Source of the DNA: Luteimonas sp. 8-5
GTDB lineage: Bacteria > Pseudomonadota > Gammaproteobacteria > Xanthomonadales > Xanthomonadaceae
NCBI RefSeq assembly: GCF_029763755.1
Contig: NZ_JARUVM010000029.1
Span: 1 to 51,939 of the forward strand
Length of the DNA stretch: 51,939 bases
Direction of reading: 5' to 3'
Notes under the pieces: model-generated
What the model saw: only the letters and a program-made list of their open reading frames with translations
The model's database searches: none
What the model was told of the DNA's origin: nothing
Program-made: the position numbers and the translations under genes
Shown: in pieces, positions 29,675-43,874 of the stretch
Position numbering within the stretch: the stretch's first letter is position 1
Layout: each line of letters starts with the position of its first letter

Positions 29675-30445
29675 TCAGGCCATCGCGGCTTTCGCGGCCT
29701 CGGTGAGCCAGCGCATTGCCCCGCTGTAGGGACCGGGTCCGTGGCTGATGCGGGCCACGCCGAGTTCGGCCAGGCGCGCGCGCGGCGGCAGGCCCGGCAT
29801 CGCCATCACGTTGACCGGCAGCGGCGAGGCCTCGGCGATGCGCGCGATCAGCGCCTCGGCCACCAGGCCGGGTACGAACAGGCCGCTGGCGCCGACATCG
29901 GCGTAGGCACGCGCACGTTCCAGCGCGGCGTCGGCCATGGCCGCGTCGTGTTCGGGGGCGGGCTTCTGGAAGAACACGTCGGTGCGCGCGTTGATGAACA
30001 TCGCCACGCCTGCGGCGTCGGCCGCCTTGCGCGCGGCGGCCAGGCGCACGGCCTGGTCGCCCGTGTCGCGCAGCATGCCGTCGACGGGGAAGCTGTCCTC
30101 GAGGTTGCAGCCGATGGCGCCGGCGTCGATGGCGGCGGCGACGGTTGCGGCCACGATGCCGGGCGCCTCGCCGTAGCCGCTCTCCAGGTCGATGGTCACC
30201 GGCAGCGCCGCGACCGCGGCGGCGATACGGCGCAGGTTGTCCAGCGCCACCGACAGCGGCAGGTTCTCGCCATCGGGGTAGCCGTTGGCCGCGGCCACCG
30301 ACCAACTCCCGGTCGCGATCGCCCTTGCCCCGGCTTCGGCCACCGCGCGTGCACTGCCCGCGTCCCAAGCGTTGAACAACACCAGCGGATCGCCGGCGAC
30401 GTGCAGCCCCCGGAACGCGGCTGCCTTCTGCTGCTGGCCGCTCAT
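29675..30445 (-). CDS. Isocitrate lyase / PEP-mutase family enzyme
   Basis: This 256-residue TIM-barrel protein is recognised by LVLFNAWDAGSARAVAEAGA, PVTIDLESGYGEAPGIV, CNLEDSFPVDGM, FINARTDVFFQK and the late GLPPRARLAELGVARISHGP. The Asp/Glu pairs in DLESG and NLEDS are the metal-binding positions of the superfamily. The KKCGH-like loop of isocitrate lyase is absent, so the closer guess is a phosphonomutase/oxaloacetate-decarboxylase-like enzyme with a small keto-acid substrate. Its ATG overlaps the stop of the small Cys-rich gene upstream. Confidence 0.86.
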   Translation of the reverse strand: MSGQQQKAAAFRGLHVAGDPLVLFNAWDAGSARAVAEAGARAIATGSWSVAAANGYPDGENLPLSVALDNLRRIAAAVAALPVTIDLESGYGEAPGIVAATVAAAIDAGAIGCNLEDSFPVDGMLRDTGDQAVRLAAARKAADAAGVAMFINARTDVFFQKPAPEHDAAMADAALERARAYADVGASGLFVPGLVAEALIARIAEASPLPVNVMAMPGLPPRARLAELGVARISHGPGPYSGAMRWLTEAAKAAMA

Positions 30446-30612
30446 GCGCGGGTCGACGCCTGCTGGATGGTGGCGGAGGCTGCGGCATAGGCCTCGCGCA
30501 GCTTGATGGCACAGTCCTCGCAGCACACTTCGACGGTCTTGCCGCCGACGCGGACCTGGATGGCGTTCTCGTCCAGCGGGTAGTCGCAGGCGGCGCAGGT
30601 CTTCTCGCTCAT
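30442..30612 (-). CDS. Small Cys-rich metal-binding protein
   Basis: A 56-residue protein (MSEKTCAACDYPLDENAIQV...). ATG 30612 follows GGAG at about 8 bases, so the longer open frame upstream is not used. Two Cys clusters (TCAACDYPL and VCCEDCAIKLREAY) form a TRASH/YHS-like treble-clef pattern, suggesting zinc or copper binding. It is coupled by a four-base overlap to the PEP-mutase-family gene downstream. The role could be metal delivery or protein binding. Confidence 0.78.
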   Translation of the reverse strand: MSEKTCAACDYPLDENAIQVRVGGKTVEVCCEDCAIKLREAYAAASATIQQASTRA

Positions 30613-30730
30613 GGTCTTGCTCCGTTTGGATTGACGCCCGGGATCGGGCAGGACCATTGGACCGCGGGCGGCCCCCGGCGGCTGTCGAAAACTTTAGCGG
30701 CCGACGGGATTCGCGTGCTAGGCTTTGCCT

Positions 30731-30838
30731 CGAAGGGGAGTAGCTCCCAATTGCCACCACCGTCATTACGAGCCGGGCTTCACGCCCCATGCTCCGGTGC
30801 GGCAGCAGGCTAGACGCCTGTGAGCGAGACCTTCGCCA
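30731..30838 (+). promoter_or_regulatory. yybP-ykoY manganese riboswitch
   Basis: Signature elements are seen in order. CGAAGG at 30731-30736 opens P1 and continues as GGGGAGTAGC. CGTCATTACG follows in the middle, and GAGCGAGACCTTCG at 30822-30835 closes the stem by pairing CCTTCG with the opening CGAAGG. The element ends about 38 bases before the TerC ATG, and the interval has a GCCATGCATGGC palindrome at 30836-30847. Mn2+ binding normally turns on exporters in this class, here TerC. Confidence 0.87.
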
Positions 30839-30872
30839 TGCATGGCGTCCCTCCCTTTCGGAAAACCACACA

Positions 30873-31616
30873 ATGGAACAGCTTGCGAACCCGGAAATCT
30901 GGATCGCGCTCGCGACCCTCACCGCGCTGGAACTGGTGCTGGGTATCGACAACATCATCTTCATCTCGATCCTGGCAGGGAAGTTGCCGCCGGCGCAGCG
31001 CGACCGCGCACGCAAGGTCGGCATCCTGCTCGCCGCAGTGACCCGGCTGGCGCTGCTGATGGCCATCGCCTGGATCGTCGGCCTCACCGCGCCGCTGTTC
31101 TCGGTGTTCGGCCACCCGTTCTCCTGGCGCGACCTGATCCTGATCGGCGGTGGCCTGTTCCTGATCGCCAAGGCCACGCACGAGATCCACCAGAAGGTCG
31201 AAGGCGCGGGCATGCCGCCCTCGGTCGCGAGCGCGGCCACCGCCGCCGGCACCGCGACCTTCGGCGCCGTGATCGGCCAGATCATGCTGCTCGACATCGT
31301 GTTCTCGCTGGACTCGATCATCACCGCGGTCGGCATGGTCGACCAGCGCTGGGTCATGGTCACCGCAATCCTGGCCTCGATCGTGTTCATGCTCGCCTTC
31401 GCCCGCCCCATCGGCGAGTTCGTAGAGCGCCACCCCACGGTCAAGGTGCTCGCGCTGAGCTTCCTGATCATGATCGGCCTGGTGCTGGTCGCCGACGGCT
31501 TCGGCCACCACGTACCCAAGGGCTACGTCTACACCGCGATGGCGTTCTCGGTGTTCGTGGAGATGATCAATTTGTGGATCAGGCGGCGGGCGGAGCGGCA
31601 GGGAGCTCGCCCCTAG
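30873..31616 (+). CDS. TerC-family membrane protein, probable Mn2+ exporter
   Basis: This 247-residue protein has about seven membrane helices. Characteristic motifs are ALELVLGIDNIIFISILAGKLP, IVGLTAPLFSVFGHPFSWRD, LIAKATHEIHQKVEG, IMLLDIVFSLDSIITAVGMVD and SFLIMIGLVLVADGFG; acidic residues in LGIDN and FSLDS are the usual metal-contact positions. The upstream yybP-ykoY riboswitch argues for manganese export. The 3' end overlaps the convergent HigA gene by four bases. Confidence 0.9.
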   Translation: MEQLANPEIWIALATLTALELVLGIDNIIFISILAGKLPPAQRDRARKVGILLAAVTRLALLMAIAWIVGLTAPLFSVFGHPFSWRDLILIGGGLFLIAKATHEIHQKVEGAGMPPSVASAATAAGTATFGAVIGQIMLLDIVFSLDSIITAVGMVDQRWVMVTAILASIVFMLAFARPIGEFVERHPTVKVLALSFLIMIGLVLVADGFGHHVPKGYVYTAMAFSVFVEMINLWIRRRAERQGARP

Positions 31617-31909
31617 GCAGCGCGCCTTCTGACCTGTGCTTCGATATCAGGTCCGCGCTCGCGACGAAGCATTCGCAGATCATAGTCTGTCTGCAGATTG
31701 AGCCAGAGCTCGGGGTTGGTGCGGAAATACACTGCCAGGCGCAAGGCGGTATCAGCAGTGAGCGCCCGACGCCCGGCAACAATCTCGCTGATGCGATTCG
31801 GCGGGACACCCAGGTCGCGGGCCAGCGCGTTCATGCTGATGCCGAGGGGCTGCATGAACTCTTCAAACAGGATTTCGCCTGGCGGAATGGGATCGAGGTG
31901 TTTGCTCAT
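31613..31909 (-). CDS. higA: HigA-family antitoxin / transcriptional regulator
   Basis: This 98-residue protein has a Cro/C1-type helix-turn-helix typical of HigA: PIPPGEILFEEFMQPLGISM, then ALARDLGVPPNRISEIVAGR, then ALTADTALRLAVYFRTNPELWLNLQ. It should bind its operator and, in an intact locus, neutralise HigB. Here the toxin gene that normally lies directly upstream is reduced to an N-terminal scrap, so this antitoxin is orphan. It may still autoregulate or counter a toxin from elsewhere. Confidence 0.92.
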   Translation of the reverse strand: MSKHLDPIPPGEILFEEFMQPLGISMNALARDLGVPPNRISEIVAGRRALTADTALRLAVYFRTNPELWLNLQTDYDLRMLRRERGPDIEAQVRRRAA

Positions 31910-31964
31910 GGTGATGCTCAGTGGTAAGCGCTTCGGCTTCCTTGCCGCGGAACGACGCGATCAT
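31863..31964 (-). pseudogene. higB toxin remnant
   Basis: ATG 31964 opens a short frame reading MIASFRGKEAEAL for 13 residues. It resembles the N-terminus of HigB/RelE-type toxins (MIxSFxxKxxEaL). The frame then runs out of register through the start of higA and stops at 31863. About 80 codons of toxin are therefore missing by deletion, and the promoter and antitoxin are left intact. No RBS precedes the ATG, and the promoter would start transcription almost at it, so the original toxin may have been leaderless. Confidence 0.65.
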
Positions 31965-31970
31965 GTGCGA

Positions 31971-31999
31971 ATGTTAGTACGTATCACGTACTACGTCAA
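31971..31999 (-). promoter_or_regulatory. higBA promoter with palindromic operator
   Basis: On the minus strand, TTGACG (31999-31994) and TAACAT (31976-31971) are spaced by 17 bases, a good sigma-70 promoter. Inside the spacer a perfect inverted repeat TAGTACGT-ATC-ACGTACTA (31975-31993) overlaps the -10 edge. It is the expected binding site for the HigA dimer and allows repression by promoter occlusion. Confidence 0.75.
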
Positions 32000-32013
32000 G
32001 CGTATCGGGCGAC

Positions 32014-32844
32014 TCACTTTCCCAGCACCGCCTGCCTGAACTCGCTTGGCGTGCGCCCGTAGACCTTCTGGAACGCCGCGGTGAAATGGCTGTGGCTGGA
32101 GAAGCCAAGGTGCAGGCCGAGCGCGGTGAGGTCGTCGAACTCGCGCAGCAGGTCCAGCGCGCGCGCCAGGCGCAGGCGCAACTGGTACTGGTACAGCGGC
32201 ACGCCCTCGACCTGGCGGAAGCTCTGGGTCAGGTACACCGCGGACACGCCGACTTCCGCCGCGACTTCGGCCAGGGTCCATCGCCGCGCCAGGTCGCTGG
32301 CCAGCACCAGCTTGGCGCGATCGACCAGGCGCTGGCGAACGTGGCTGGAACCGGCCGCATGCGTGGTCCGCGGCGCCAACGCACGATGCACCAACGTCAG
32401 CGCCAGGCTCTCGCCTTCCAGCGGCTCGGCGATGCCCTCGAGCAGCGAATGCCGCAGCATCGCCACCAGCACCTGCGCGCGCGGATCGATGCGCAGCCGC
32501 GGCAGGCGGAAGCGTAGCGGCTTGCCTTCGTGCACGAGCCCTGGCGGCGCTATCTCGCGCAACAGGTGCGGGTCCACCCACAACGACAACGTCGCATCGC
32601 CACCCGGGTTCGGATGGCTCACCTGATAGTCCTCGCCGGCGTTGAAGAACAACACCTGGCTCGCATCGGCCACGGCCTCCTCGTCGCCGGTGTGGCGCAC
32701 GTAGGTGCCGCGATAGGGGAAGCCCAGGGTAGTGCGCGGCGAGCGCTCGGTGTCGCCCTTGTGGCGGTGGGTGCCCGTGCAGGCGACGTCGCGGATCTCC
32801 ACCAGCGGCGTGGTCAGCAGCGTCTGGACCTGGAACTCCGACAT
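32014..32844 (-). CDS. AraC-family transcriptional regulator
   Basis: A 276-residue protein. The N-terminal half is a cupin-like ligand or effector domain ([57 protein letters not shown]). The C-terminal AraC/XylS double helix-turn-helix comprises [22 protein letters not shown] and [20 protein letters not shown], then [12 protein letters not shown]. It sits 20 bp downstream of the ABC permease on the same strand and may be in that operon. The effector is unknown. Confidence 0.92.
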
Positions 32845-32864
32845 GCGCGCGCCCAGCCGAGGCC

Positions 32865-33637
32865 TCAGGCCTTGAGCTTCCACCCGCTGCGGAAGATCCA
32901 CCACACCGCCACCAGGCAGGCCACCAGGAACCCGAGGATGGCGGCGATGCTGATCCCCACCGGGACGTCGGCATTGCCGTAGAAGCTCCAGCGGAATCCG
33001 CTGATCAGGTACACCACCGGGTTGAACAGGGTGATGGTCTGCCACACCGGCGGCAGCATCTTGATCGAGTAGAACGCGCCGCCGAGGAAGGTCAGCGGGG
33101 TGATCACCATCAGCGGCACCACCTGCAGCTTCTGGAAGTCGTCGGCCCAGAGCCCGATGATGAAACCGAACAGGCTGAAGCTGGTCGCCGTGAGCAGCAG
33201 GAAGGCCAGCATCCAGAACGGATGCTGGATTTCGTAGTCTACGAACACCCGCGCCGTGGCCAGGATCAGCACGCCCAGGATCAGCGACTTGGTCGCCGCC
33301 GCGCCGACGTAGCCGATCACCACCTCGACGAAGGACACCGGCGCCGACAGCAGCTCGTAGATCGTGCCCGACCACTTGGGCATGTAGATCCCGAACGAGG
33401 CGTTGGAGATGCTCTCGCCCAGCAGCGACAGCATGATCAGGCCGGGAATGATGAAGGCGCCGTAGCCGACCCCGTCGATCTCGCCCATGCGCGAACCGAT
33501 CGCCGAGCCGAACACCACGAAGTACAGCGAGGTCGTGAGCACCGGCGCGGCGATGGACTGCATCAGCGTGCGCCCGGTGCGGGCCATCTCGAAGCGATAG
33601 ATCGCGCGGATGGCGTGCAGGTTGAGGCCCATGCGGC

Positions 33638-33641
<4 letters not shown>
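32865..33641 (-). CDS. ABC-2 type transporter permease
   Basis: This 258-residue protein has about six hydrophobic segments ([119 protein letters not shown]). The ABC2-membrane signature region [19 protein letters not shown] is typical. The start overlaps the ATPase stop by four bases. With the ATPase it forms an exporter. The substrate is unknown; such pairs export drugs, antibiotics or lipid-linked polymers. Confidence 0.92.
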
Positions 33642-34582
<941 letters not shown>

Positions 34583-34654
34583 GGGGCCGATCATAGCTAG
34601 CAGCAGGCAGGAGAGCGACAGCTATGCTGCTCCGGAAATTAGTATCCTGGGGCC

Positions 34655-35605
34655 ATGGAGCGCCTCCCGCCCGCGACCGATCTGCCCTTCGAAGTAGGGG
34701 CGCTTTACAGTCGCCGCGATCAAATCCATGGCCCATTGGGCGGACAGCGGCAAGGTGGCATCTCCACACCTGCTACCAGCCCCTTCGTCATCCTATTTAC
34801 AGGCGAAGCGGGCAAACAGCACGGCTATCACGACTTCTGGGACGACAACGGAGTCCTTCACTATTATGGTGAGGGACAACGGGGCGATATGAAGTTCTCG
34901 GGTGGCAACCTAGCCATTCGCGAACATCTGAACAATCTTAAGCGCCTGTTGCTTTTCCAGATGATGGGTCATGGTCGGCCATGCAGGTTCTTGGGCGAAT
35001 TCCGCTTCGTGCATGCCTACGAGCAATCCGGAATCCCGGATACAAGCGGTGAGCTACGTAAAGCGCTTGTATTTATGCTGCAACCGATCGAATCTTCATT
35101 CGAACCATTCGACAAATCAATTGGCGACGCGCGGAGTCCGGAGATTGAACTTTCTTCCACCATTTCGTCGCAAGTATTGGAAGTCAGAACTAAGCAGTCA
35201 CTCTTTAAGCGCCGTCTGTTGACCGTAGAAAAGGAATGTCGCTTGACTCGGATCGCTGATTTGCGTTTTCTACGCGCGAGCCATATCAAGCCATGGTCGA
35301 AATGCGCCTCTGGGGACGAACGCATTGATGGCAGCAATGGCCTGTTGCTGAGTCCTGCAGCGGATCATCTGTTTGATCGTGGTTGGATTACTTTTGAAGA
35401 TGACGGTGCTCTCGTTCGATCGGATGCGCTTCCCGGTGATGTCATTAGCCGAATCGGAATAGATCTTACGCAAGGTCGAAAGTGCGGGACTTTCAGCCAA
35501 GTTCAAAAGAAATATCTCCAATATCACCGTAACAAGATTTTTGAGAAGACCTTCAAGACGATGCCCGACACCCTCTTAGAGCTTCTGACTAAATCAGGCG
35601 CTTAG
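34655..35605 (+). CDS. ScoMcrA-like SRA-domain HNH endonuclease (type IV restriction)
   Basis: This 316-residue protein has an N-terminal domain at about 10-110 ([76 protein letters not shown]) that matches the SRA-like modified-DNA reader of ScoMcrA-type proteins. The C-terminal HNH (about 200-265) has [30 protein letters not shown] and [10 protein letters not shown]. It should cut DNA carrying modified bases such as 5-methylcytosine or phosphorothioate, acting against foreign modified DNA. It begins the AT-richer defence island, divergent from the ABC exporter. Confidence 0.85.
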
Positions 35606-35682
35606 TTCCGCTGACTGGCCTTCGACACGACGCTCAGCAGGCCGGTTGACAAAAAAACAGGTCGCTTGATGTCATCCTTCAC

Positions 35683-35835
35683 GCATGCAACACTTCGGCA
35701 TCTCCCAAGGGGAGTAACGGCACCCCTCAGCGGTACTTGTACTTTGGGGCATGGAGTTCAAAATCCATGGCAACTGAAACTTACTTTAACTAGGTTGGTG
35801 TCCGTGGAAGGCCCGAGTTCGCTCGGGCCTTTTTT
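35683..35835 (+). ncRNA. Candidate small RNA upstream of the reverse transcriptase
   Basis: The 256-bp gap before the reverse transcriptase has no gene, but it has a promoter-like TTGACA (35646-35651) with an 18-base spacer to TGTCAT (35670-35675). Local stems follow: CTCCC-AAG-GGGAG at 35702-35714, and CATGGA/TCCATG at 35750-35755 and 35764-35769. A Rho-independent terminator ends just before the gene. Several defence RTs and all retrons use an adjacent structured RNA as template or cofactor, so this is a plausible ~150-nt RNA. The ends are predictions. Confidence 0.5.
35808..35835 (+). terminator. Rho-independent terminator before the RT gene
   Basis: AAGGCCCGAG (35808-35817) pairs perfectly with CTCGGGCCTT (35822-35831) around a TTCG tetraloop and is followed by a T-run to 35835. 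It stops transcription 26 bases ahead of the RT ATG. RT expression must therefore come from readthrough, or transcripts must be cut or attenuated here. This arrangement suits an independently terminated small RNA. Confidence 0.9.
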
Positions 35836-35861
35836 AGTTGCGAAATCGCTAAGGAGCCAAC

Positions 35862-37352
35862 ATGCTTGACGCGCGCAACATCGAAAAAGCGATCGCCGAA
35901 GAATCGGCGAAACTCATAGAACGATTCAACTCGTATCACAACAACTTACATGTCGATTGGACTAGAAATAAAAGGCGATTTCCCACGATCGGTCCAAAAG
36001 TAGTTTTGCGGCCAGATTATTGGCTCATCGATCCAAAGTTCGACCCTTTTTACTGCAAGCATAAAGCGAAGGCGATTGCACGATCGATCGCACGAAAGAT
36101 CAAGCTCGGCACGTACGCACCACACACACCACATGTAAAAATAATTCCAAAAACGTTAGGCGGTACGCGAACCGTTCACATTTACCAAATTCCTGACGCA
36201 GCTGTCTCCAAAATTGTCTATTCGAGGCTGCTAACCAAGAATAGGCATAGATTTAGTTCGTTCGCATATGCGTACCGTGACGACCGGAATGTACATTTCG
36301 CCATACAAGACATGTATGTCGACCTTTCTAAGAAAGATCGCGCCTTTATTGCGGAATTCGATTTTTCCGACTTCTTCGGAAAAATCGATCACGCCTATCT
36401 ACTTGGCGAACTAGGAAAACATGGCCTATTGCTCAGTGAGCAGGATCTGCGCATCATCAAAGCGTTTCTTTCAGGACGAGACGGAGTTCCCCAGGGAACT
36501 TCTGTTTCGCTCTTTCTCGCAAATGTAGCCTGCTTTGAATTAGATCGAGAGCTAGAGCGCTTAGGCGTTAAATTCGCGCGATACGCTGACGATACAGTCA
36601 TTTGCAGCCCCAGCTACGAGGCAACCTGCGCGGCCGTGCAAGCTCTGTTCAACTTTTCGGAAAGATCAGCTGTACCGATCAATTTTAAGAAATCTGCTGG
36701 CATTCACCTAATTTCTAGCCAGCCAAAGAACGCAGAAATACGCGCGAAGTCATCGTTTGACTTCCTTGGCTACGCACTCGCGCCGGGAAGGCTATCGATT
36801 AAGAGCTCCTCTGTCTTGAAGATAAAGAAAGAAATTTCCTATCTTCTCTATCGCAATCTTATTCAACCCTTGAAGGTTCCTGCATTAGCAGGCATATCCA
36901 TCCCATCCGGCGGCAGAGATGAAGGCCTCCTTACCGCCATGATGCAGGTCCGTCGATACGTTTGTGGCGGGCTATACAAGGCAACACTGAGGCGCTACAC
37001 ATTCGGTCATGGTGGGCAGCTGAGATTCAAGGGGGCAATGAGTTTTTATCCATTGGTGGACGACATTGATCAGTTGAGGGCACTAGATGGCTGGCTTGTC
37101 TCCACGATATATCGGGCATTGCAGCTTCGAGTCCAGCTCCTCGCCGCCCATGGATTCACTCGCCATTCGATGTTTCCATTTAATGTGCCAAGAAGCGATT
37201 TGGTTGAGCATTTTGATAAGCACCAAATTCGCGGCAAGCCTCTACTAGAAATTCCGAGTTTCGTCGTAGTGCAAACTGCCATGCAGCATGGGCTCCGCGA
37301 GCACGGAATTCAGCATGTTATGAATAGTCAATCGAATGCCTACAAATACTGA
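35862..37352 (+). CDS. Reverse transcriptase, defence-associated (DRT/UG-like)
   Basis: A 496-residue protein with the full set of RT palm motifs. Motif A is IAEFDFSDFFGKIDH (Asp 167), motif B is DGVPQGTSVSLFLANVA (about 208-222) and motif C is FARYADDTVICS (Asp 243-244). NFKKSAG and FDFLGYALAPG follow. A helical C-terminal part (about 310-496) has RFKGAMSFYPLVDDIDQLRA and later residues. Motif B (PQGTS) differs from retron RTs (PQGxxTSP), and there is no maturase X domain or intron. An AGGAG site precedes the ATG. It lies between two defence genes. The class cannot be named from sequence reading alone. Confidence 0.85.
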   Translation: MLDARNIEKAIAEESAKLIERFNSYHNNLHVDWTRNKRRFPTIGPKVVLRPDYWLIDPKFDPFYCKHKAKAIARSIARKIKLGTYAPHTPHVKIIPKTLGGTRTVHIYQIPDAAVSKIVYSRLLTKNRHRFSSFAYAYRDDRNVHFAIQDMYVDLSKKDRAFIAEFDFSDFFGKIDHAYLLGELGKHGLLLSEQDLRIIKAFLSGRDGVPQGTSVSLFLANVACFELDRELERLGVKFARYADDTVICSPSYEATCAAVQALFNFSERSAVPINFKKSAGIHLISSQPKNAEIRAKSSFDFLGYALAPGRLSIKSSSVLKIKKEISYLLYRNLIQPLKVPALAGISIPSGGRDEGLLTAMMQVRRYVCGGLYKATLRRYTFGHGGQLRFKGAMSFYPLVDDIDQLRALDGWLVSTIYRALQLRVQLLAAHGFTRHSMFPFNVPRSDLVEHFDKHQIRGKPLLEIPSFVVVQTAMQHGLREHGIQHVMNSQSNAYKY

Positions 37353-37493
37353 ATTACTAAGCCTCACTTGGGTCTACTTCCTCTCCCCGCCGTGGACGTT
37401 GTGATCCCTAACGCAAGGGAGATCCAAATCGGCCGCCTTCTGCATTGCTTTACTTCAACATTCAAACCGCTAATCGAGTAGGGTTTTTCCCTT

Positions 37494-37570
37494 CTACCCT
37501 TTCAGCTCGATCGCCTTCGAAACAGTCTTTGCCGTAACCTCCCCTACGCTAACAGTGCCGCGATGGCCGC
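37494..37570 (-). pseudogene. Displaced, decayed copy of the aceE 3' end
   Basis: Read on the minus strand, this ends VGEVTAKTVSKAIELKG then TAG. The authentic aceE C-terminus reads EGKLAAKDVAKAIELYG, which is 10 of 17 identical. Just upstream in another frame VTAFLAAIAALLA parallels the aceE VAQAAVAALAAEG, so a frameshift is present. At DNA level, AGCTCGATCGCCTTCG here corresponds to AGCTCAATCGCCTTCG in aceE. The SPARSA operon lies between this scrap and intact aceE, as expected when an island inserts at a gene end and displaces the old end. Confidence 0.62.
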
Positions 37571-37770
37571 CAGAAACGCAGTAACCAACCGCGCATCGCA
37601 GCACCACTACCCAGCACCGCCACGGCCTTCTCGCCAGCGCGATTCGCTTAGGGTCGCCCGACGCTAGCGCAGCGGTGAAGGTCACCGGCGACGCCGACGA
37701 TCTCAAAGCCCTTCCGGGTCGATCGCACGCGCTCCGCGGGCCCGGGCGTAAGGATTGCGGCATTCGGCCA

Positions 37771-37849
37771 ATTGCGAGCCGAATCGCTTGCGGCCCGTCA
37801 CCATTTCTCGTATAGCTGCGATACTCGAAATAGAGGTACGGCTCGCAAT
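37771..37849. repeat. 11-bp perfect inverted repeat flanking the SPARSA promoter
   Basis: ATTGCGAGCCG (37771-37781) and CGGCTCGCAAT (37839-37849) are exact reverse complements separated by 57 bp. The right arm covers the first two bases of the SIR2 start codon. The arms bracket a predicted promoter. They could be paired operator half-sites, or, in a longer transcript, a stem that hides the start codon. Confidence 0.6.
37788..37816 (+). promoter_or_regulatory. Predicted promoter of the SIR2-Ago operon
   Basis: TTGCGG (37788-37793) and TATAGC (37811-37816) are separated by 17 bases, and transcription would begin near 37823, about 25 bases before ATG 37848. AGAGGT at 37831-37836 is a fair ribosome-binding site. 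This is a visual assignment only. Confidence 0.45.
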
Positions 37850-39620
37850 GTCTGCGCCAGAGATCAAGGAAATCGAGCTCCGCCAATATGTCGCCCAGAA
37901 TGGGCAGCATTTGATGTGGTTCCTCGGAGCCGGGGCGTCACGCAGTTCCGGACTTCCAACTGCAACAGACCTAATTTGGGATCTTAAGCTTCGCTACTAC
38001 TGTTCCCAGGAAAATCAAGACATTGTTGCTCATGACGTGAGCAATCGAGCTGTCCAAGCGCGCATACAGACGTATATGGACAGTAAAGGCTTTCCGCCCC
38101 CTGGAGATCCCACGGAATATTCTTTCTATTTCGAGCTGCTATTCGGAAGAGACTATGCGGCACAGCAGAGGTACCTCAGCAAGGCACTTGCAACAGAGAA
38201 GGTTTCCTCAGCCATCGGCCACCGCGCGTTAGCCGCGCTGTTGCATCTCGGCCTTGCCAGAATAATCTTCACGACAAATTTTGACGAAGTTGTCGAATCC
38301 GCCTACGCCTCTATTTCAGGCAAGAATCTAGCGACCTTCCATCTTGAAGGCTCTTACGCCGCGGTTGAAGCGTTAAACGCGGAGAAGTTCCCGTTCTACG
38401 CGAAAATTCACGGTGATTTTCGGTATCAGACCGTGAAGAATCTTTCTGACGATCTGCTACACAACGACCGTGAAGTTCAGAGGTGCTTTGTGGCCGCCGC
38501 TGTTCGCTTCGGAATTGTGGTCAGTGGATACAGTGGGCGCGATGGCAACGTAATCGCAATGTTTCACGAAGCTATCGATCAGAACAATGCCTTTCCGCAT
38601 GGCTTGTATTGGACGGTTCCGCGAATTTCCGCAGTAGAAGCGCCAGTACGTGAATTGATCGAATACGCGCACAGGAAGGGAATAAAGGCTGGAATAGTCG
38701 AAACGGGTACGTTCGACGAGATGTTGTCAAAAATCTGGCGTCTGGTCGCCGAAAAGAACCCAAGCATTGACAGCAAAGTCAGAAGCGCCGCGGCTAAGTC
38801 CGTAAATATTCCGCTTCCGCCTGTTGGCACCGCGTACCCTATGCTTCGAACGAATGCGCTTCAAATTACCGGGTTTCCGAGTGCCTGCGGCACAATCGAT
38901 TATGACGGAACTCTGGACATTGGACAGCTGAAAAGGGCTTTGTTCGAAGAGCAACCTCCATGTTCAGCCTGCTACACGGACCGCGTCCTATTTTGGGGAG
39001 ATGGCGAGGCGCTCGCCAAGATATACGAGTCCGATCGGGCGAAGTCCGTTTCGTCGTTCGAGATCGGTGACATGCTCCGTGCGATTAACGATTCGACTTA
39101 CTTCAAATCGATGGTGGAGCACACTATAGCATCAGCACTGGTCTCGAATGCCCCCCTAGTTCTGCGTAAGCAGGGTAATACTTGGTACGCCATCACTAGC
39201 CACAAAGAGGAAAACAGCGAAGCCTTGAAACCATTGCGAGATGCGCTTTCTTGGAAGGATCGAGACGGCAAGTTTCACAGCGGAGTCGTGAACGGTCAGG
39301 TCTTTGGCCTCAAAGATGTGTATTGGGCTGAGGCCATTTCGCTGAAAGTGGAAGAGCGGAACGGTCGGCTGTGGCTGCTCCTACGACCTGATGTTTGGAT
39401 TTCTCCGAGTAAGATGCGCGAAGAAGCAACAGATTTTCTCTACAGGAAGAAGATACGCCGCTATAACAAACAGGCATCCGAAATTCTGAGCGCTTGGATT
39501 GCGATTCTTCTTGGAGGCCTTGGAAAGGGAGACGCCATTATCACCGCATACGATGGGTCCAACTACCCAGCGCAGTTTCAGATCAGCATGCGCTCCGCGT
39601 TCAGCAGAATTGGGGGCTAG
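37848..39620 (+). CDS. SIR2-APAZ effector of a SPARSA short-Argonaute system
   Basis: A 590-residue protein. The N-terminal SIR2 NAD-hydrolase domain (to about 290) has [17 protein letters not shown] (NAD loop), [26 protein letters not shown] (catalytic His 188) and [16 protein letters not shown]. The rest (about 300-590) fits the APAZ region that pairs with short Argonautes. On guide-directed target recognition such complexes deplete NAD+ and kill or arrest the infected cell. ATG 37848 ([13 protein letters not shown]) was chosen over the longer frame because of the RBS and domain start. The Argonaute gene follows after one base. Confidence 0.92.
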
Positions 39621-39621
39621 T

Positions 39622-41046
39622 ATGAGTAATGATCCAAATGCATTGCCAGCCAGCTCTATTCTTCCCGAACCGCGCTTACTCTTCGCGAGCGCAAAGACTC
39701 ACGCTCATCCGCTTCGCGGCCTAACAGACCACGGGCCATACAGCCTCGACATCGGAGCACCAAGAGTGGTCCGCCTTGCTTTTCTTGCGCCTAACGCCCT
39801 TCTTCCAAGACTCGATGCCCTTGTAAGAGAATTGATGAACAAGCAGCAGGTTCGCGAAGCCCCGAACTACTACATCGCGTATGAAGGATTTGAAAAAGTC
39901 TTTCGCGCACAACTTATACCGCCGACAGAATCTCTACGCGTTTCCACCCCGAATGAATGCAACGCTATGGCGGTCGCAGGCAACGGCAACGCTCTGGTCG
40001 ATTTGATTTTGCATGCAATCCTTCCACTGCAAAAGATCAAGTATACGTTTGACGTGCTAGTTATTTATCTGCCTGCCGCATGGAAAGCGTCCTATCTGTA
40101 CGAAGGCTTCGATCTTCACGACAGAATCAAAGCGAAGCTCGCGCCACTCAACATTCCAATCCAAATTCTCAATGACACAGTATTCGAGCGTACTTGTCGC
40201 GCACAGGTTGCGTGGGGATTGAGCGTCGCCCTTTATGCAAAGGCAAACGGGATCCCATGGAAGCTCGCCGACTGGGACAAAGACGAGGCCTATATCGGGC
40301 TCAGCTATGCCATCAAGACCCTCGAGAATGGCGCCGAGTACAGCACTTGTTGCAGCCAGGTTTTCGATCCGGACGGCACCGGATTTGAGTTCATCGCCTA
40401 CGATACGCGCGAGTACGAGACTGATCGTAAGGGCAACCCCTACTTGACCTATCAAGAGATGCAGTCAGTGCTCTCGAAAAGTCTATTGCTCTATCAGAAC
40501 TCCCACAACGGACGCTTGCCAAAAAAGATCTATGTCCATAAAACCACGCACTTCACGGAAGACGAGATCCAAGGCGCGCTCGATGCATTCGGCTCGAGGA
40601 TGGAAATCGAGCTAGTTCAAATCGTGCGCGGAAGTAATTGGTATGGCCTGAAGATTGACGGCCCGAATAGGTGGAACAATAAGCCATCCCCTGCCGGGTA
40701 TTCCGTTGATCGAGGCCTCTACCAGCCGCTCACCGGAAACGAGTGTCTTCTTTGGACGCAGGGGTCCGTCCATGACATCAATCAACACAGGCCCAATCAA
40801 CCTGTGTTCAAAGAAGCACCGCTTAAACCTCTTCCCAACCCGATAATGCTGCGTCGGTTCTCTGGAGATGGCGGATGGCATGCGACGTGTGCGAGCATTC
40901 TCGCCCTTACAAAGGTCGATTGGAACAACAACACGCTCTATAAGACATTGCCGGTAACACTCGTGTACTCGCAGGTATTCGCTGAGGTCGTAAAGCAGTC
41001 GCCGGATATCGTGAACGATGTCTATGATTATCGGATGTTCATGTAG
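39622..41046 (+). CDS. Short prokaryotic Argonaute (MID-PIWI, catalytically inactive)
   Basis: This 474-residue protein lacks PAZ and N domains. The MID region (about 140-215: [40 protein letters not shown]) should hold the guide 5' end. The PIWI region has [15 protein letters not shown], where Ser replaces the first catalytic Asp, and later [20 protein letters not shown]. The DEDX nuclease tetrad is therefore broken, as in other short pAgos. It binds a small RNA guide and a DNA target, and activates the SIR2-APAZ partner. It starts one base after the SIR2 stop, so the two are translated together. Confidence 0.93.
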
Positions 41047-41156
41047 TGGACATTCGTGGAATAGAATTCGGTTAAGTCATGCGGCTTTAGCAATGCAATT
41101 GAGTCCGGGATGGGTCGACACTAATCCACATATCTAACGTTGCAAGGGCTATGGTC

Positions 41157-43874
41157 TTAAGCCCCCAACGGATTCGGCTTCTTCCCATCGATCCCGTAAA
41201 GCTCAATCGCCTTCGCCACATCCTTCGCTGCGAGCTTCCCCTCAGCCGCCAACGCCGCCACAGCCGCCTGCGCCACGTAGTACCGGTCCACCTCGAAGTG
41301 CTTGCGCAGGTTCTCGCGGGTGTCGCTGCGGCCGAAGCCGTCCGTGCCTAGCACGGTGTAACGCATCGGCACGAACTGGCGGATCTGCTCGGGGTACAGG
41401 CGGATGTAGTCGGTGGCGGCGATGGCCGGCCCCTGCCGTCCTTCCAGCAGCTCGGTCACATAGGCCTTGCGCGGCTTGGCCTCGGGGTTGAGGCGGTTGT
41501 GGCGCTCCACGTCCTGGCCGTCGCGGGCCAGCTCGTTGAAGCTCGGGCAGGACCAGATGTCGGCCTTGATGCCGAAGTCCTTCTCCAGCAGCTCCGCCGC
41601 GGCAATCACCTCGCGCAGGATCGTCCCCGAGCCCATCAGCTGCACACAGAGCGCGTCCTTGCCCTTGCCCTTCGCTTTCCCCGAGTCCCGAGTCCCGAGT
41701 CCCGAGTCCCGGAACAAATACATGCCCTTGAGGATCCCTTCCGCGCTGCCTTCCGGCATCTCCGGGTGCGCGTAGTTCTCGTTCATGAGGGTGACGTACC
41801 AGTACTCGTCCTTCTGCTCGGCCAGCATGCGCTGCATGCCGTGCTGGATGATGGTGACCACTTCGTAGGCGAAGGTAGGGTCGTAGCTGCGCACGTTGGG
41901 GATCAGCGCGGCCTGGACCAGGCTGTGGCCGTCCTCGTGCTGCAGGCCTTCGCCGTTGAGCGTGGTCCTGCCGGCGGTGGCGCCGAGCAGGAAGCCGCGC
42001 GAGCGCATGTCGCCGGCCTGCCAGGCGGCGTCGCCGATGCGCTGGAAGCCGAACATCGAGTAGTAGATGTAGAACGGCAGCATCTGCAGGTCGTTGGTGC
42101 TGTAGCTGGTGGCGCAGGCCAGCCAGCTGGCGAACGCGCCAGCCTCGGTGATGCCTTCCTGCAGCACCTGCCCGGCGGCGTCCTCGCGGTAGTACATGAG
42201 CTGGTCGGCGTCGACCGGCTTGTACTTCTGTCCGTTGGGGGCGTAGATGCCGATCTGCCGGAACAGGCCTTCCATGCCGAAGGTGCGGGCCTCGTCGGCG
42301 ACGATCGGCACCAGGCGCGGGCCGACCTGCTTGTCGCGCAGGGCAATGTTGAGCATCTGCACGAAGGCCATGGTGGTGCTGATCTCGCGGTCGCCGGTGC
42401 CCTTGAGCAGGCGCTCGTAGGTCTGCAGCGGCTGCACTTCCAGCGACTGGGTGGCCTTGCGCCGGCGCTGCGGCAGGAAGCCGCCCAGCGCGCGGCGGCG
42501 CTCGAGCATGTATTCGACTTCCGGCGAGTCCTTGCCTGGGTGGTAGAACGGCACCTTGTGCTCTTCGAGCTGCTTGTCGGTGACCGGGATCTGGAAGCGG
42601 TCGCGGAACGCCTTGACGTCCTCGTCGTCCATCTTCTTGGTGCCGTGCGTGGGGTTCAGCGCTTCGCCGGCCTTGCCCATGCCGTAGCCCTTGACCGTCT
42701 TGGCCAGGATCACGGTGGGCATGCCCTTGGTGTTCACCGCGGCGTGGTAGGCGGCGTAGACCTTGTGCGGGTCGTGGCCGCCGCGGTTGAGGCGCCAGAT
42801 GTCGTCGTCGGAGAGGTTGGCGACCAGCGCGGCGGTCTCCGGGGTCTTGCCGAAGAAGTGCTCGCGCGTGTAGGCGCCACCGAAGGCCTTGCAGTTCTGG
42901 TACTCGCCGTCGACGGTCTCCATCATCACCCGGCGCAGCTGGCCGCCGGTGTCGCGGGCCAGGAGCGGATCCCAGTAGCTGCCCCAGATGGTCTTGATCA
43001 CGTTCCAGCCGGCGCCGCGGAAGTTGCCTTCCAGCTCCTGGATGATCTTGCCGTTGCCGCGCACCGGGCCGTCCAGGCGCTGCAGGTTGCAGTTGATGAC
43101 GAAGATGAGGTTGTCCAGGCCTTCGCGGCCGGCCACGGAGATTGCGCCCAGGCTCTCGGGCTCGTCGGTCTCGCCGTCGCCGAGGAAGCACCAGACCTTG
43201 CGGTCGCTCTTGGGCATCAGGCCGCGCGCTTCCAGGTACTTGAAGTTGCGCGCCTGGTAGATGGCGGCGATCGGCCCCAGGCCCATGGAGACGGTGGCGG
43301 TCTGCCAGTAGTCGGGCATCAGCCAGGGGTGCGGGTAGGAGCTCAGGCCCTTGCCGCCCACCTCCATGCGGAAGTTGTGCAGCTGCTCGTCGCTGATGCG
43401 GCCTTCGAGGAAGGAGCGGGCATAGACGCCGGGGGAGCCGTGGCCCTGGATGTAGAGCAGGTCGCCGGGGTGGTCCTCGGACGGGGCGCGCCAGAAGTGG
43501 TTGAAGCCGACGTCGTAGAGGGTGGCGCTGGAGCCGAAGGTGGCGATGTGGCCGCCGAGCTCGCCGGGCTTGCGGTTGGCGGCCACGACCATGGCCATGG
43601 CGTTCCAGCGGATCAGCGAGCGGATCCGCCATTCCATCGCGGCGTCGCCGGGGCTCCTGGCTTCTTCGCCCGGGGGAATGGTGTTGATGTACTCGGTGGT
43701 GGGGTCGAACGGCAGGTTCGCGCCCGCGCGGCGGGTGACCTCGACCACGTTCTCCAGCAGCTGGTGGGCGCGGCCGGGGCCGTCCCGGTCGAGCACGGCC
43801 TGGATCGAGTCGAGCCACTCGCGGGTCTCGATCGGATCGGGGTCTTCGCGCAGGAGGGCGTTGTCGTGGGTCAT
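41157..43874 (-). CDS. aceE: Pyruvate dehydrogenase E1 component (AceE)
   Basis: This 905-residue homodimeric E1 decarboxylates pyruvate with thiamine diphosphate and passes the acetyl group to E2 lipoyl arms. It is recognised by IRWNAMAMVVAANRKPGELG, GHGSPGVYARSFLEGRIS, KVWCFLGDGETDEPESLGAI, VINCNLQRLDGPVRGNGK and LLGATAGRTTLNGEGLQHED. It is slightly longer than usual because of a low-complexity insert RDSGLGTRDSGKAKGKGKD near residue 725-735, encoded by a heptamer repeat. No E2/E3 genes are adjacent in the window. The 3' end faces the defence island. Confidence 0.97.
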   Translation of the reverse strand: MTHDNALLREDPDPIETREWLDSIQAVLDRDGPGRAHQLLENVVEVTRRAGANLPFDPTTEYINTIPPGEEARSPGDAAMEWRIRSLIRWNAMAMVVAANRKPGELGGHIATFGSSATLYDVGFNHFWRAPSEDHPGDLLYIQGHGSPGVYARSFLEGRISDEQLHNFRMEVGGKGLSSYPHPWLMPDYWQTATVSMGLGPIAAIYQARNFKYLEARGLMPKSDRKVWCFLGDGETDEPESLGAISVAGREGLDNLIFVINCNLQRLDGPVRGNGKIIQELEGNFRGAGWNVIKTIWGSYWDPLLARDTGGQLRRVMMETVDGEYQNCKAFGGAYTREHFFGKTPETAALVANLSDDDIWRLNRGGHDPHKVYAAYHAAVNTKGMPTVILAKTVKGYGMGKAGEALNPTHGTKKMDDEDVKAFRDRFQIPVTDKQLEEHKVPFYHPGKDSPEVEYMLERRRALGGFLPQRRRKATQSLEVQPLQTYERLLKGTGDREISTTMAFVQMLNIALRDKQVGPRLVPIVADEARTFGMEGLFRQIGIYAPNGQKYKPVDADQLMYYREDAAGQVLQEGITEAGAFASWLACATSYSTNDLQMLPFYIYYSMFGFQRIGDAAWQAGDMRSRGFLLGATAGRTTLNGEGLQHEDGHSLVQAALIPNVRSYDPTFAYEVVTIIQHGMQRMLAEQKDEYWYVTLMNENYAHPEMPEGSAEGILKGMYLFRDSGLGTRDSGKAKGKGKDALCVQLMGSGTILREVIAAAELLEKDFGIKADIWSCPSFNELARDGQDVERHNRLNPEAKPRKAYVTELLEGRQGPAIAATDYIRLYPEQIRQFVPMRYTVLGTDGFGRSDTRENLRKHFEVDRYYVAQAAVAALAAEGKLAAKDVAKAIELYGIDGKKPNPLGA
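41680..41711. repeat. Heptamer tandem repeat inside aceE
   Basis: Four exact copies of CCCGAGT (41680-41707) plus a partial copy run through the aceE coding frame. On the coding strand they read GGGACTC units, giving the in-frame low-complexity DSGLGTRDSG insert. The next bases code KAKGKGK. Each gain or loss of a single unit would shift the frame of an essential gene; three units (21 bp) would be tolerated. Confidence 0.85.

What the first reader, a model, noticed from the sequence alone, without database searches (positions are those of the whole stretch)
35606..37352. Reverse transcriptase with a candidate template/cofactor RNA upstream
The RT has complete palm motifs, but PQGTS in motif B and a helical C-terminus unlike retrons or group II introns. 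The 256-bp gap before it carries a promoter-like element, local stems and a perfect terminator 26 bases before the ATG. Known defence RTs and retrons use adjacent structured RNAs. Together with defence neighbours this suggests an RT-based immune unit, possibly of an undescribed class. The sequence shows motifs and the terminator; the defence role and RNA are inference.
Basis: partly seen in the sequence, partly recalled or inferred. Interest (0 to 1): 0.85.

Follow-up and report, generated by a model that had tools for sequence, protein, structure and literature searches.

The report
DRT9 antiphage enzyme, altered RNA template
This is a known kind of bacterial antivirus system (DRT9), thought to sacrifice infected cells by making long DNA strings from a small RNA template, but this copy has one changed letter in a template that was the same in every relative examined here.

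Summary
The reverse transcriptase (35862-37352) and the RNA gene before it are real and belong together. They are a divergent DRT9 (UG28) unit, a described antiphage system, not an undescribed class. PADLOC Drt9 scores 628 bits, the next model 98. The AlphaFold model matches six DRT9 cryo-EM chains at TM 0.90-0.96. A covariance model built from 24 relatives without the window hits the window once, at 35692-35807, E 1e-11; its helices covary. The unit lies in a low-GC slot with HNH and SIR2/short-Argonaute genes; in two of seven congeners examined the slot holds other defence genes. Likely mechanism, inferred from published DRT9 work: tyrosine-primed poly-dA synthesis on a uridine template, then abortive infection. 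The surprise is the template: 37 of 37 other ncRNAs have UUUU, the window UUUA. Its RT is also on a long branch (1.2, median 0.27). It is a working three-uridine template, a decaying system, a changed product or a base error. How many uridines are needed is stated as open in print, so this is a useful natural variant.

The parts
34620..41157 (.). Low-GC variable slot (defence island) between an ABC-transporter ATPase gene and aceE
   Evidence: GC 0.514 against 0.678 (left) and 0.682 (right); in L132 and L133 both edges align to congeners and the content between differs; in L134-L138 only the aceE side (and for L138 one other stretch) aligned
34655..35605 (+). HNH endonuclease gene, neighbour; no evidence that it is part of the unit
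   Evidence: Pfam HNH_2 40.8 bits, PADLOC HNH 73 bits; about 40% identical relatives in congeners L136 and L137
35646..35675 (+). Promoter-like TTGACA-18-TGTCAT; a weak alternative TTGATG-17-AACACT at 35666-35694 would start the RNA at the family position (read by eye)
   Evidence: the stricter scanner found none
35692..35807 (+). DRT9 ncRNA core as matched by covariance model R1
   Evidence: 59 bits, E 1.1e-11, full-length model 1-128
35702..35714 (+). SL1, CTCCC/GGGAG
   Evidence: R1 alignment; helix 1 of A4, 98.3% of cells paired, 4 of 5 pairs with both-side changes
35750..35769 (+). SL5 hairpin CATGGA...TCCATG whose loop keeps UCAAAA with the base equivalent to C94
   Evidence: C94 numbering checked on L114
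35785..35788 (+). Template positions: UUU at 35785-35787 and A at 35788, where 37 of 37 relatives have UUUU (U124-127 in E. coli DRT9 numbering)
35810..35835 (+). Terminator hairpin (SL6 equivalent) and T6
   Evidence: sequence; fold
35862..37352 (+). DRT9 reverse transcriptase, 496 aa, C-terminus ...SNAYKY with the two tyrosines (Y494, Y496)
37848..39620 (+). SIR2-type protein with pAgo-N-terminal-type part, neighbour
   Evidence: PADLOC Aga_SIR2-PNTD1-PNTD2 644 bits, Pfam SIR2_2 51.8 bits; start codon chosen by eye
39622..41046 (+). Short prokaryotic Argonaute, neighbour
   Evidence: PADLOC pAgo_I 616.9 bits; no Pfam match; start codon chosen by eye

Best explanation
A two-part DRT9 antiphage unit. 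Shown here: a DRT9-type RT directly behind a DRT9-type ncRNA that ends in a terminator, in a variable slot with other defence-type genes. Inferred from the published DRT9 work: the ncRNA scaffolds an RT hexamer and presents a short U tract beside the YADD site; a C-terminal tyrosine primes; the RT copies the U tract over and over into poly-dA joined to itself; on infection this accumulates and the cell dies before phage spreads. Particular to this copy: the tract is three U followed by A. I think it most likely still makes poly-dA by slipping on UUU, perhaps less well. Odds: about 0.97 that it is of the DRT9 family, about 0.57 for the whole statement with the product.
For: Drt9 628 bits over residues 5-494, next model 98. 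PDB DRT9 RT, E 1.2e-172. Model with mean pLDDT 86.7 matching 9vma, 9vku (two chains), 9ioa, 9nlx, 9nlv at query-normalised TM 0.90-0.96; the next listed structures reach at most 0.56. Y25, K98, R104, R140, YADD, Y496 and Y498 equivalents kept. ncRNA found by an independent model with covariation score 0.645 against 0.209 in shuffles and at most 0.149 in slid controls, and 14 of 20 pairs with both-side changes on an alignment not fitted to the model. Slot with defence-type genes.
Against: The template departs from an element called universally conserved; in SenDRT9 deletion of one U, or U4 replaced by C4, G4 or A4, abolished defence. The RT has a long end branch (1.2, median 0.27) and departs at 10 columns that at least 94% of the others share. 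R205 and K208, which dock SL4 in E. coli DRT9, are S and D here, but these columns vary in the family. The base equivalent to kissing-loop G114 is U at the same offset, with a G next to it, as in L024, L027 and L033. No expression or activity data.
Confidence: 0.57

Rival explanations
1. A DRT9 unit on its way to decay: the ORF is still open, but the template change and the losses at conserved RT positions have already made it weak or dead.
For: Single exception at the template; long branch; V65C, W225F, W248C and Y368C at columns where 35 of 35 others agree; promoter not at the usual spacing; single-base changes and a deletion in this loop impaired SenDRT9.
Against: ORF, catalytic residues, both priming tyrosines, ncRNA helices and terminator are intact. 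Other long-branch members with normal UUUU have similar counts of odd residues (L116 10, L023 9, L013 7), though L026 with a branch of 0.86 has 2 and L016, whose contig cuts the RT, has 13.
Confidence: 0.25
2. A DRT9 with a changed product: the A is copied, giving dA tracts broken by T, or the loop works by the DRT10 A-B-A' rule as AACU-UACUUU-AACU, giving a 10-nt repeat AAAGTAAGTT.
For: The A at 35788 makes a 4-nt A/A' match at period 10; DRT10 uses 2- to 4-nt matches directly behind the template (passages of PMC12632851). In SenDRT9 the template letters set the product: A4 gave poly-dT. W248C lies four residues after YADD.
Against: Ordinary UUUU loops have such matches too: L114, the E. coli DRT9 type, has 6 nt at period 6 and 4 nt at period 10, and that type makes poly-dA. 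No SLATT family among the three neighbouring genes scanned.
Confidence: 0.08
3. A base-calling or assembly error at 35788; the true template is UUUU.
For: One draft genome of 193 contigs, one base, no second allele: 0 of 99 other relatives searched carry the RT.
Against: An error falling by chance on this very position is unlikely beforehand, and the RT is divergent in many places, so the locus is not simply a normal copy with one wrong letter.
Confidence: 0.08
4. An RT class not yet described.
For: PQGTS motif B and poor retron and group II scores.
Against: Drt9 profile, DRT9 structures and DRT9 ncRNA all match; four of the five PQGTS letters' columns and the fifth are invariant or nearly invariant in the 20-row DRT9 alignment.
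Confidence: 0.01

Closest known systems
DRT9 / UG28 of Salmonella enterica and E. coli (PDB 9ioa, 9iob, 9nlv, 9nlx, 9vku, 9vma; PMC12483538, PMC12489045)
   Same: RT with N-terminal helix, YADD, C-terminal tyrosine pair, upstream ncRNA with SL1, SL2 closing stem, SL5 with UCAAAA loop, template loop and terminator
   Different: About 52-53% identical RT; template UUUA and not UUUU; a gap of five columns in the template loop against most relatives; long branch
DRT10 / UG17 (PMC12632851, passages)
   Same: Related RT and similar ncRNA layout; loop holds an A-B-A' match
   Different: RT_UG17 83 bits against Drt9 628; no SLATT family in the three neighbours scanned; the match is not special to this loop
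DRT2 / UG2
   Same: RT-only protein with upstream ncRNA
   Different: Drt2 77.8 bits; DRT2 structure 9c0i at query TM 0.39; DRT2 makes a repeated gene-coding cDNA
SPARSA (SIR2 plus short Argonaute), for the neighbouring genes
   Same: Profile matches for both proteins
   Different: Neighbour only; seen in print as search listing and abstract starts; no functional link to the RT shown

Membership tests
DRT9 / UG28 | RT of the Drt9/UG28 family | tested here: met
   628.4 bits, E 2e-189, next 98.1; structure TM 0.90-0.96
DRT9 / UG28 | YADD catalytic site and lock residues (K98, R104, R140) | tested here: met
   Kept in the window and in all 36 aligned RTs
DRT9 / UG28 | N-terminal helix extension with Y25 | tested here: met
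   Helix 4-39 in the model; Y25 in 36 of 36
DRT9 / UG28 | C-terminal tyrosine pair used for priming | tested here: met
   Y494 and Y496, aligned to Y496 and Y498; priming itself not tested
DRT9 / UG28 | Upstream ncRNA with the conserved stems | tested here: met
   R1 match 59 bits, E 1.1e-11
DRT9 / UG28 | Four-uridine template (U124-127) | tested here: not met
   UUUA in the window; UUUU in 37 of 37 others. Hence filed as a divergent variant of DRT9
DRT9 / UG28 | Kissing contact C94-G114 between ncRNAs | tested here: inconclusive
   C94 equivalent present; U at the G114 offset with G beside it, as in L024, L027, L033
DRT9 / UG28 | Hexamer, poly-dA on infection, abortive infection | not testable with these tools
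   Needs the bench
DRT10 / UG17 | RT of the UG17 family | tested here: not met
   83 bits against 628 for Drt9
DRT10 / UG17 | SLATT partner gene | tested here: not met
   None among the three neighbouring genes scanned; other ORFs of the window not scanned
DRT10 / UG17 | A-B-A' pattern in the template loop | tested here: inconclusive
   AACU-UACUUU-AACU present, but comparable matches occur in ordinary DRT9 loops
Retron | Retron RT family | tested here: not met
   retron_St85_RT 62.3 bits, cut-off 235
Group II intron RT | Group II maturase-RT family | tested here: not met
   TIGR04416 119.7 bits, cut-off 300

The most novel reading that the evidence does not exclude
A DRT9 whose natural template was rewritten from UUUU to UUUA, with accompanying change in the RT near the active site (W248C, W225F), so that it makes dA tracts broken by T, or a 10-nt repeat, and not a pure homopolymer: a natural step between DRT9 homopolymer and DRT10 repeat synthesis.
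Probability: 0.08. Interest if true: 0.75.

Novelty: new variant of a known kind. Interest (0 to 1): 0.38.

Why it matters
The uridine tract of DRT9 is described as universally conserved, and the authors name the number of uridines needed as an open question (PMC12483538, passages). A natural unit with three uridines and an A, otherwise complete, gives a ready pair (UUUA against UUUU) for asking how slippage, product and immunity depend on the template. The congeners also mark a chromosomal slot that holds different defence genes in different species.

Tried and rejected
Undescribed class: rejected. Retron and group II intron: rejected. Rfam, 30000-43000: one match only, 20.4 bits against a gathering score of 56.

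DNA-pattern scans of IMG/VR for UUUA and UUUU loops gave 16 and 60 contigs; none of these 76 encodes a relative of the RT at tblastn E 1e-15, so they are taken as chance and left out of the census (one, L038, has a weak R1 match, 11.7 bits, E 0.36). Two other viral scans gave the same two contigs. Phage records: no match at E 1e-40. Plasmids: 2 records. In 100 genomes of relatives only the window's own has the RT, so no close allele could be compared and no selection test was possible.

Repeat-product idea: kept only as a low-odds rival, for the reason given there. Partnership with the HNH or SIR2/Ago genes: tblastn at E 1e-3 against 48 loci (41 from DRT9 searches, 7 from congeners) found no SIR2 or Ago relative, and HNH relatives only in congeners L136 and L137; flanks were often short, so this is weak evidence.

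Left out of the 38-RNA census: L115 (same R1 coordinates and score as L114), L117 and L118 (same contigs as L032 and L033), L029 and L031 (the window), L035 (contig starts before the RNA), L037 (contig starts inside the RT), and L036, L139, L140, L141 (no R1-type RNA). The script's pattern allowed only T or A at the fourth template place; the alignments (34 relatives; L119-L121) were read to check that none has another letter there.

Full report
What is there. The finding names an RT ORF at 35862-37352 and a 256-bp gap before it; both are as described. The RT has 496 codons, PQGTS at 210-214 and YADD at 241-244. The gap ends in a GC-rich hairpin with six T at 35810-35835, 26 bases before the ATG. 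The simple scanner found neither this terminator nor a promoter; the fold shows the hairpin.

Identity of the RT. Among 5027 PADLOC models the best is Drt9, 628.4 bits over residues 5-494; then come a generic RT model at 98.1 and UG17 at 83. NCBIfam retron and group II models are far below their cut-offs. Among PDB sequences the first hit is the 499-aa DRT9 RT of six entries (9ioa, 9iob, 9nlv, 9nlx, 9vku, 9vma), E 1.2e-172. An AlphaFold2 model from the window plus 19 relatives (mean pLDDT 86.7) matches six DRT9 chains at query TM 0.90-0.96; of the 50 structures listed the rest reach at most 0.56. Y25, K98, R104, R140, YADD, Y496 and Y498 are kept; R205 and K208, which dock SL4 in E. coli DRT9, are S and D, at columns that vary in the family (roles from PMC12489045, results).

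The RNA. One scan of genome contigs gave 28 relatives; further searches added more (and the plasmid). DRT9 is rare: 2 of 369 genomes of the class and 5 of 398 of the phylum, the window's own counted in each. I built a covariance model from 24 relatives without the window. In the window's 51,939 bases it gave one match at E up to 10: 35692-35807, plus strand, 59 bits, E 1.1e-11. On 35 sequences the 20 modelled pairs form standard pairs in 92.8% of cells; the covariation score is 0.645 against 0.209 in shuffles (0 of 500 as high) and at most 0.149 in slid controls. That alignment was fitted to the model and leans towards it; on the 24-row alignment not fitted to it, 14 of 20 predicted pairs have both-side changes. 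The E. coli locus L114 encodes an RT that agrees, as far as printed, with the solved DRT9 chain. The RNA positions named in PMC12489045 (U67, C94, A106, G114, U121, U124-127, U131) carry the named base in L114 once U124 is set, so the numbering is safe.

The template. In SenDRT9 the U4 tract (U123-126; U124-127 in the E. coli paper) lies about 8 A from YADD and templates poly-dA; deletion of U124, or U4 changed to C4, G4 or A4, abolished defence, and the A4 RNA made poly-dT (sections 3-6 of PMC12483538). Of 38 ncRNAs in my set, 37 have UUUU and the window has UUUA (checked). No UUUU lies in 35692-35807; the only longer U run is the terminator's, and the matching 3' U-rich stretch was dispensable in SenDRT9. 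The window also has a five-column gap in the template loop against most relatives. The paper calls the tract universally conserved and says that the number of uridines required is open (passages). Its figures and the logo are not held, so a tested or already seen U126A cannot be excluded.

The RT is divergent as well. On a maximum-likelihood tree of 36 RTs the window's end branch is 1.2 against a median of 0.27, and no strongly supported group of up to half the rows holds it. It departs at ten columns that at least 94% of the others share, among them V65C, W225F, W248C (four residues after YADD) and Y368C. Other long-branch members with UUUU have 10 (L116), 9 (L023) and 7 (L013); L026 has 2 and L016, cut by its contig end, 13. 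So the count alone proves neither compensation nor decay.

Surroundings. 34620-41157 has GC 0.514 against 0.68 on either side. It holds an HNH gene, the DRT9 unit, and a SIR2 plus short-Argonaute pair, which resembles SPARSA (search listing with abstract starts of PMC10781750 and PMC10474274). Seven congeneric stretches were fetched. In two, L132 and L133, both edges align to the window and the space between differs; in the other five mainly the aceE side aligned. Of six ORFs scanned there, L132 has a type II methyltransferase (518 bits), a restriction-enzyme match (68 bits) and a weak NsnA match (25 bits); L133 has candidate defence gene PDC-S41 (918 bits) and two ORFs without a match. So the place looks like a slot for defence genes. 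A paper search for DRT9 with 'defense island' and 'argonaute' found none.

How it most likely works. By family identity: an ncRNA-scaffolded RT hexamer, tyrosine-primed iterative copying of the U tract into poly-dA, accumulation on infection when a phage protein out-competes host ExoI, and cell death (PMC12483538, sections 3-6 and passages; PMC12489045, results). Only the parts are shown here. For this copy, slippage on three uridines is the simplest reading; decay, a changed product and a base error are rivals with the weights given.

Verdict. Observation confirmed; interpretation partly right. A known system, DRT9; a new variant by its template. Modest interest, since it offers a natural test of a point left open in print.

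Noticed in passing
L140:1333-1483 and L141:1332-1481: Two DRT9-family RTs (PDLC03766 513 and 502 bits) of the same phylum but another class carry no R1-type RNA. Upstream they share a different RNA-like stretch of about 150 nt, 85% identical, with a long closing stem (GGTGGGGCG with CGCCCCACC in L140) and a common fold of 43 pairs, 2 with both-side changes: perhaps a second ncRNA type in this RT family.
   Followed up: partly
L139:1989-4119 (Thioclava plasmid p3): A Drt9-profile RT (484 bits) directly followed by a SLATT gene, with no R1-type RNA found. Just upstream lies GGAAACTTAGATTATCTACCG, like the DRT9 template loop but without UUUU, read by eye.
   Followed up: partly
L036:1501-3018: Another Drt9-profile RT (523 bits) with no R1-type RNA in the stretch held.
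   Followed up: no
window 34620-41157 with L132, L133: Variable slot between an ABC-transporter gene and aceE that holds different defence-type genes in congeners.
   Followed up: partly
window 37848-41046: SIR2 protein plus short Argonaute, SPARSA-like by profile, not studied further.
   Followed up: no
L114:2102-5181 and L115:2102-5181: The DRT9 unit was reached in 2 of 5426 E. coli genomes, behind ssrA and an integrase gene; RefSeq starts the RT CDS inside the ncRNA (532 codons against 499 in the solved chain).
   Followed up: no
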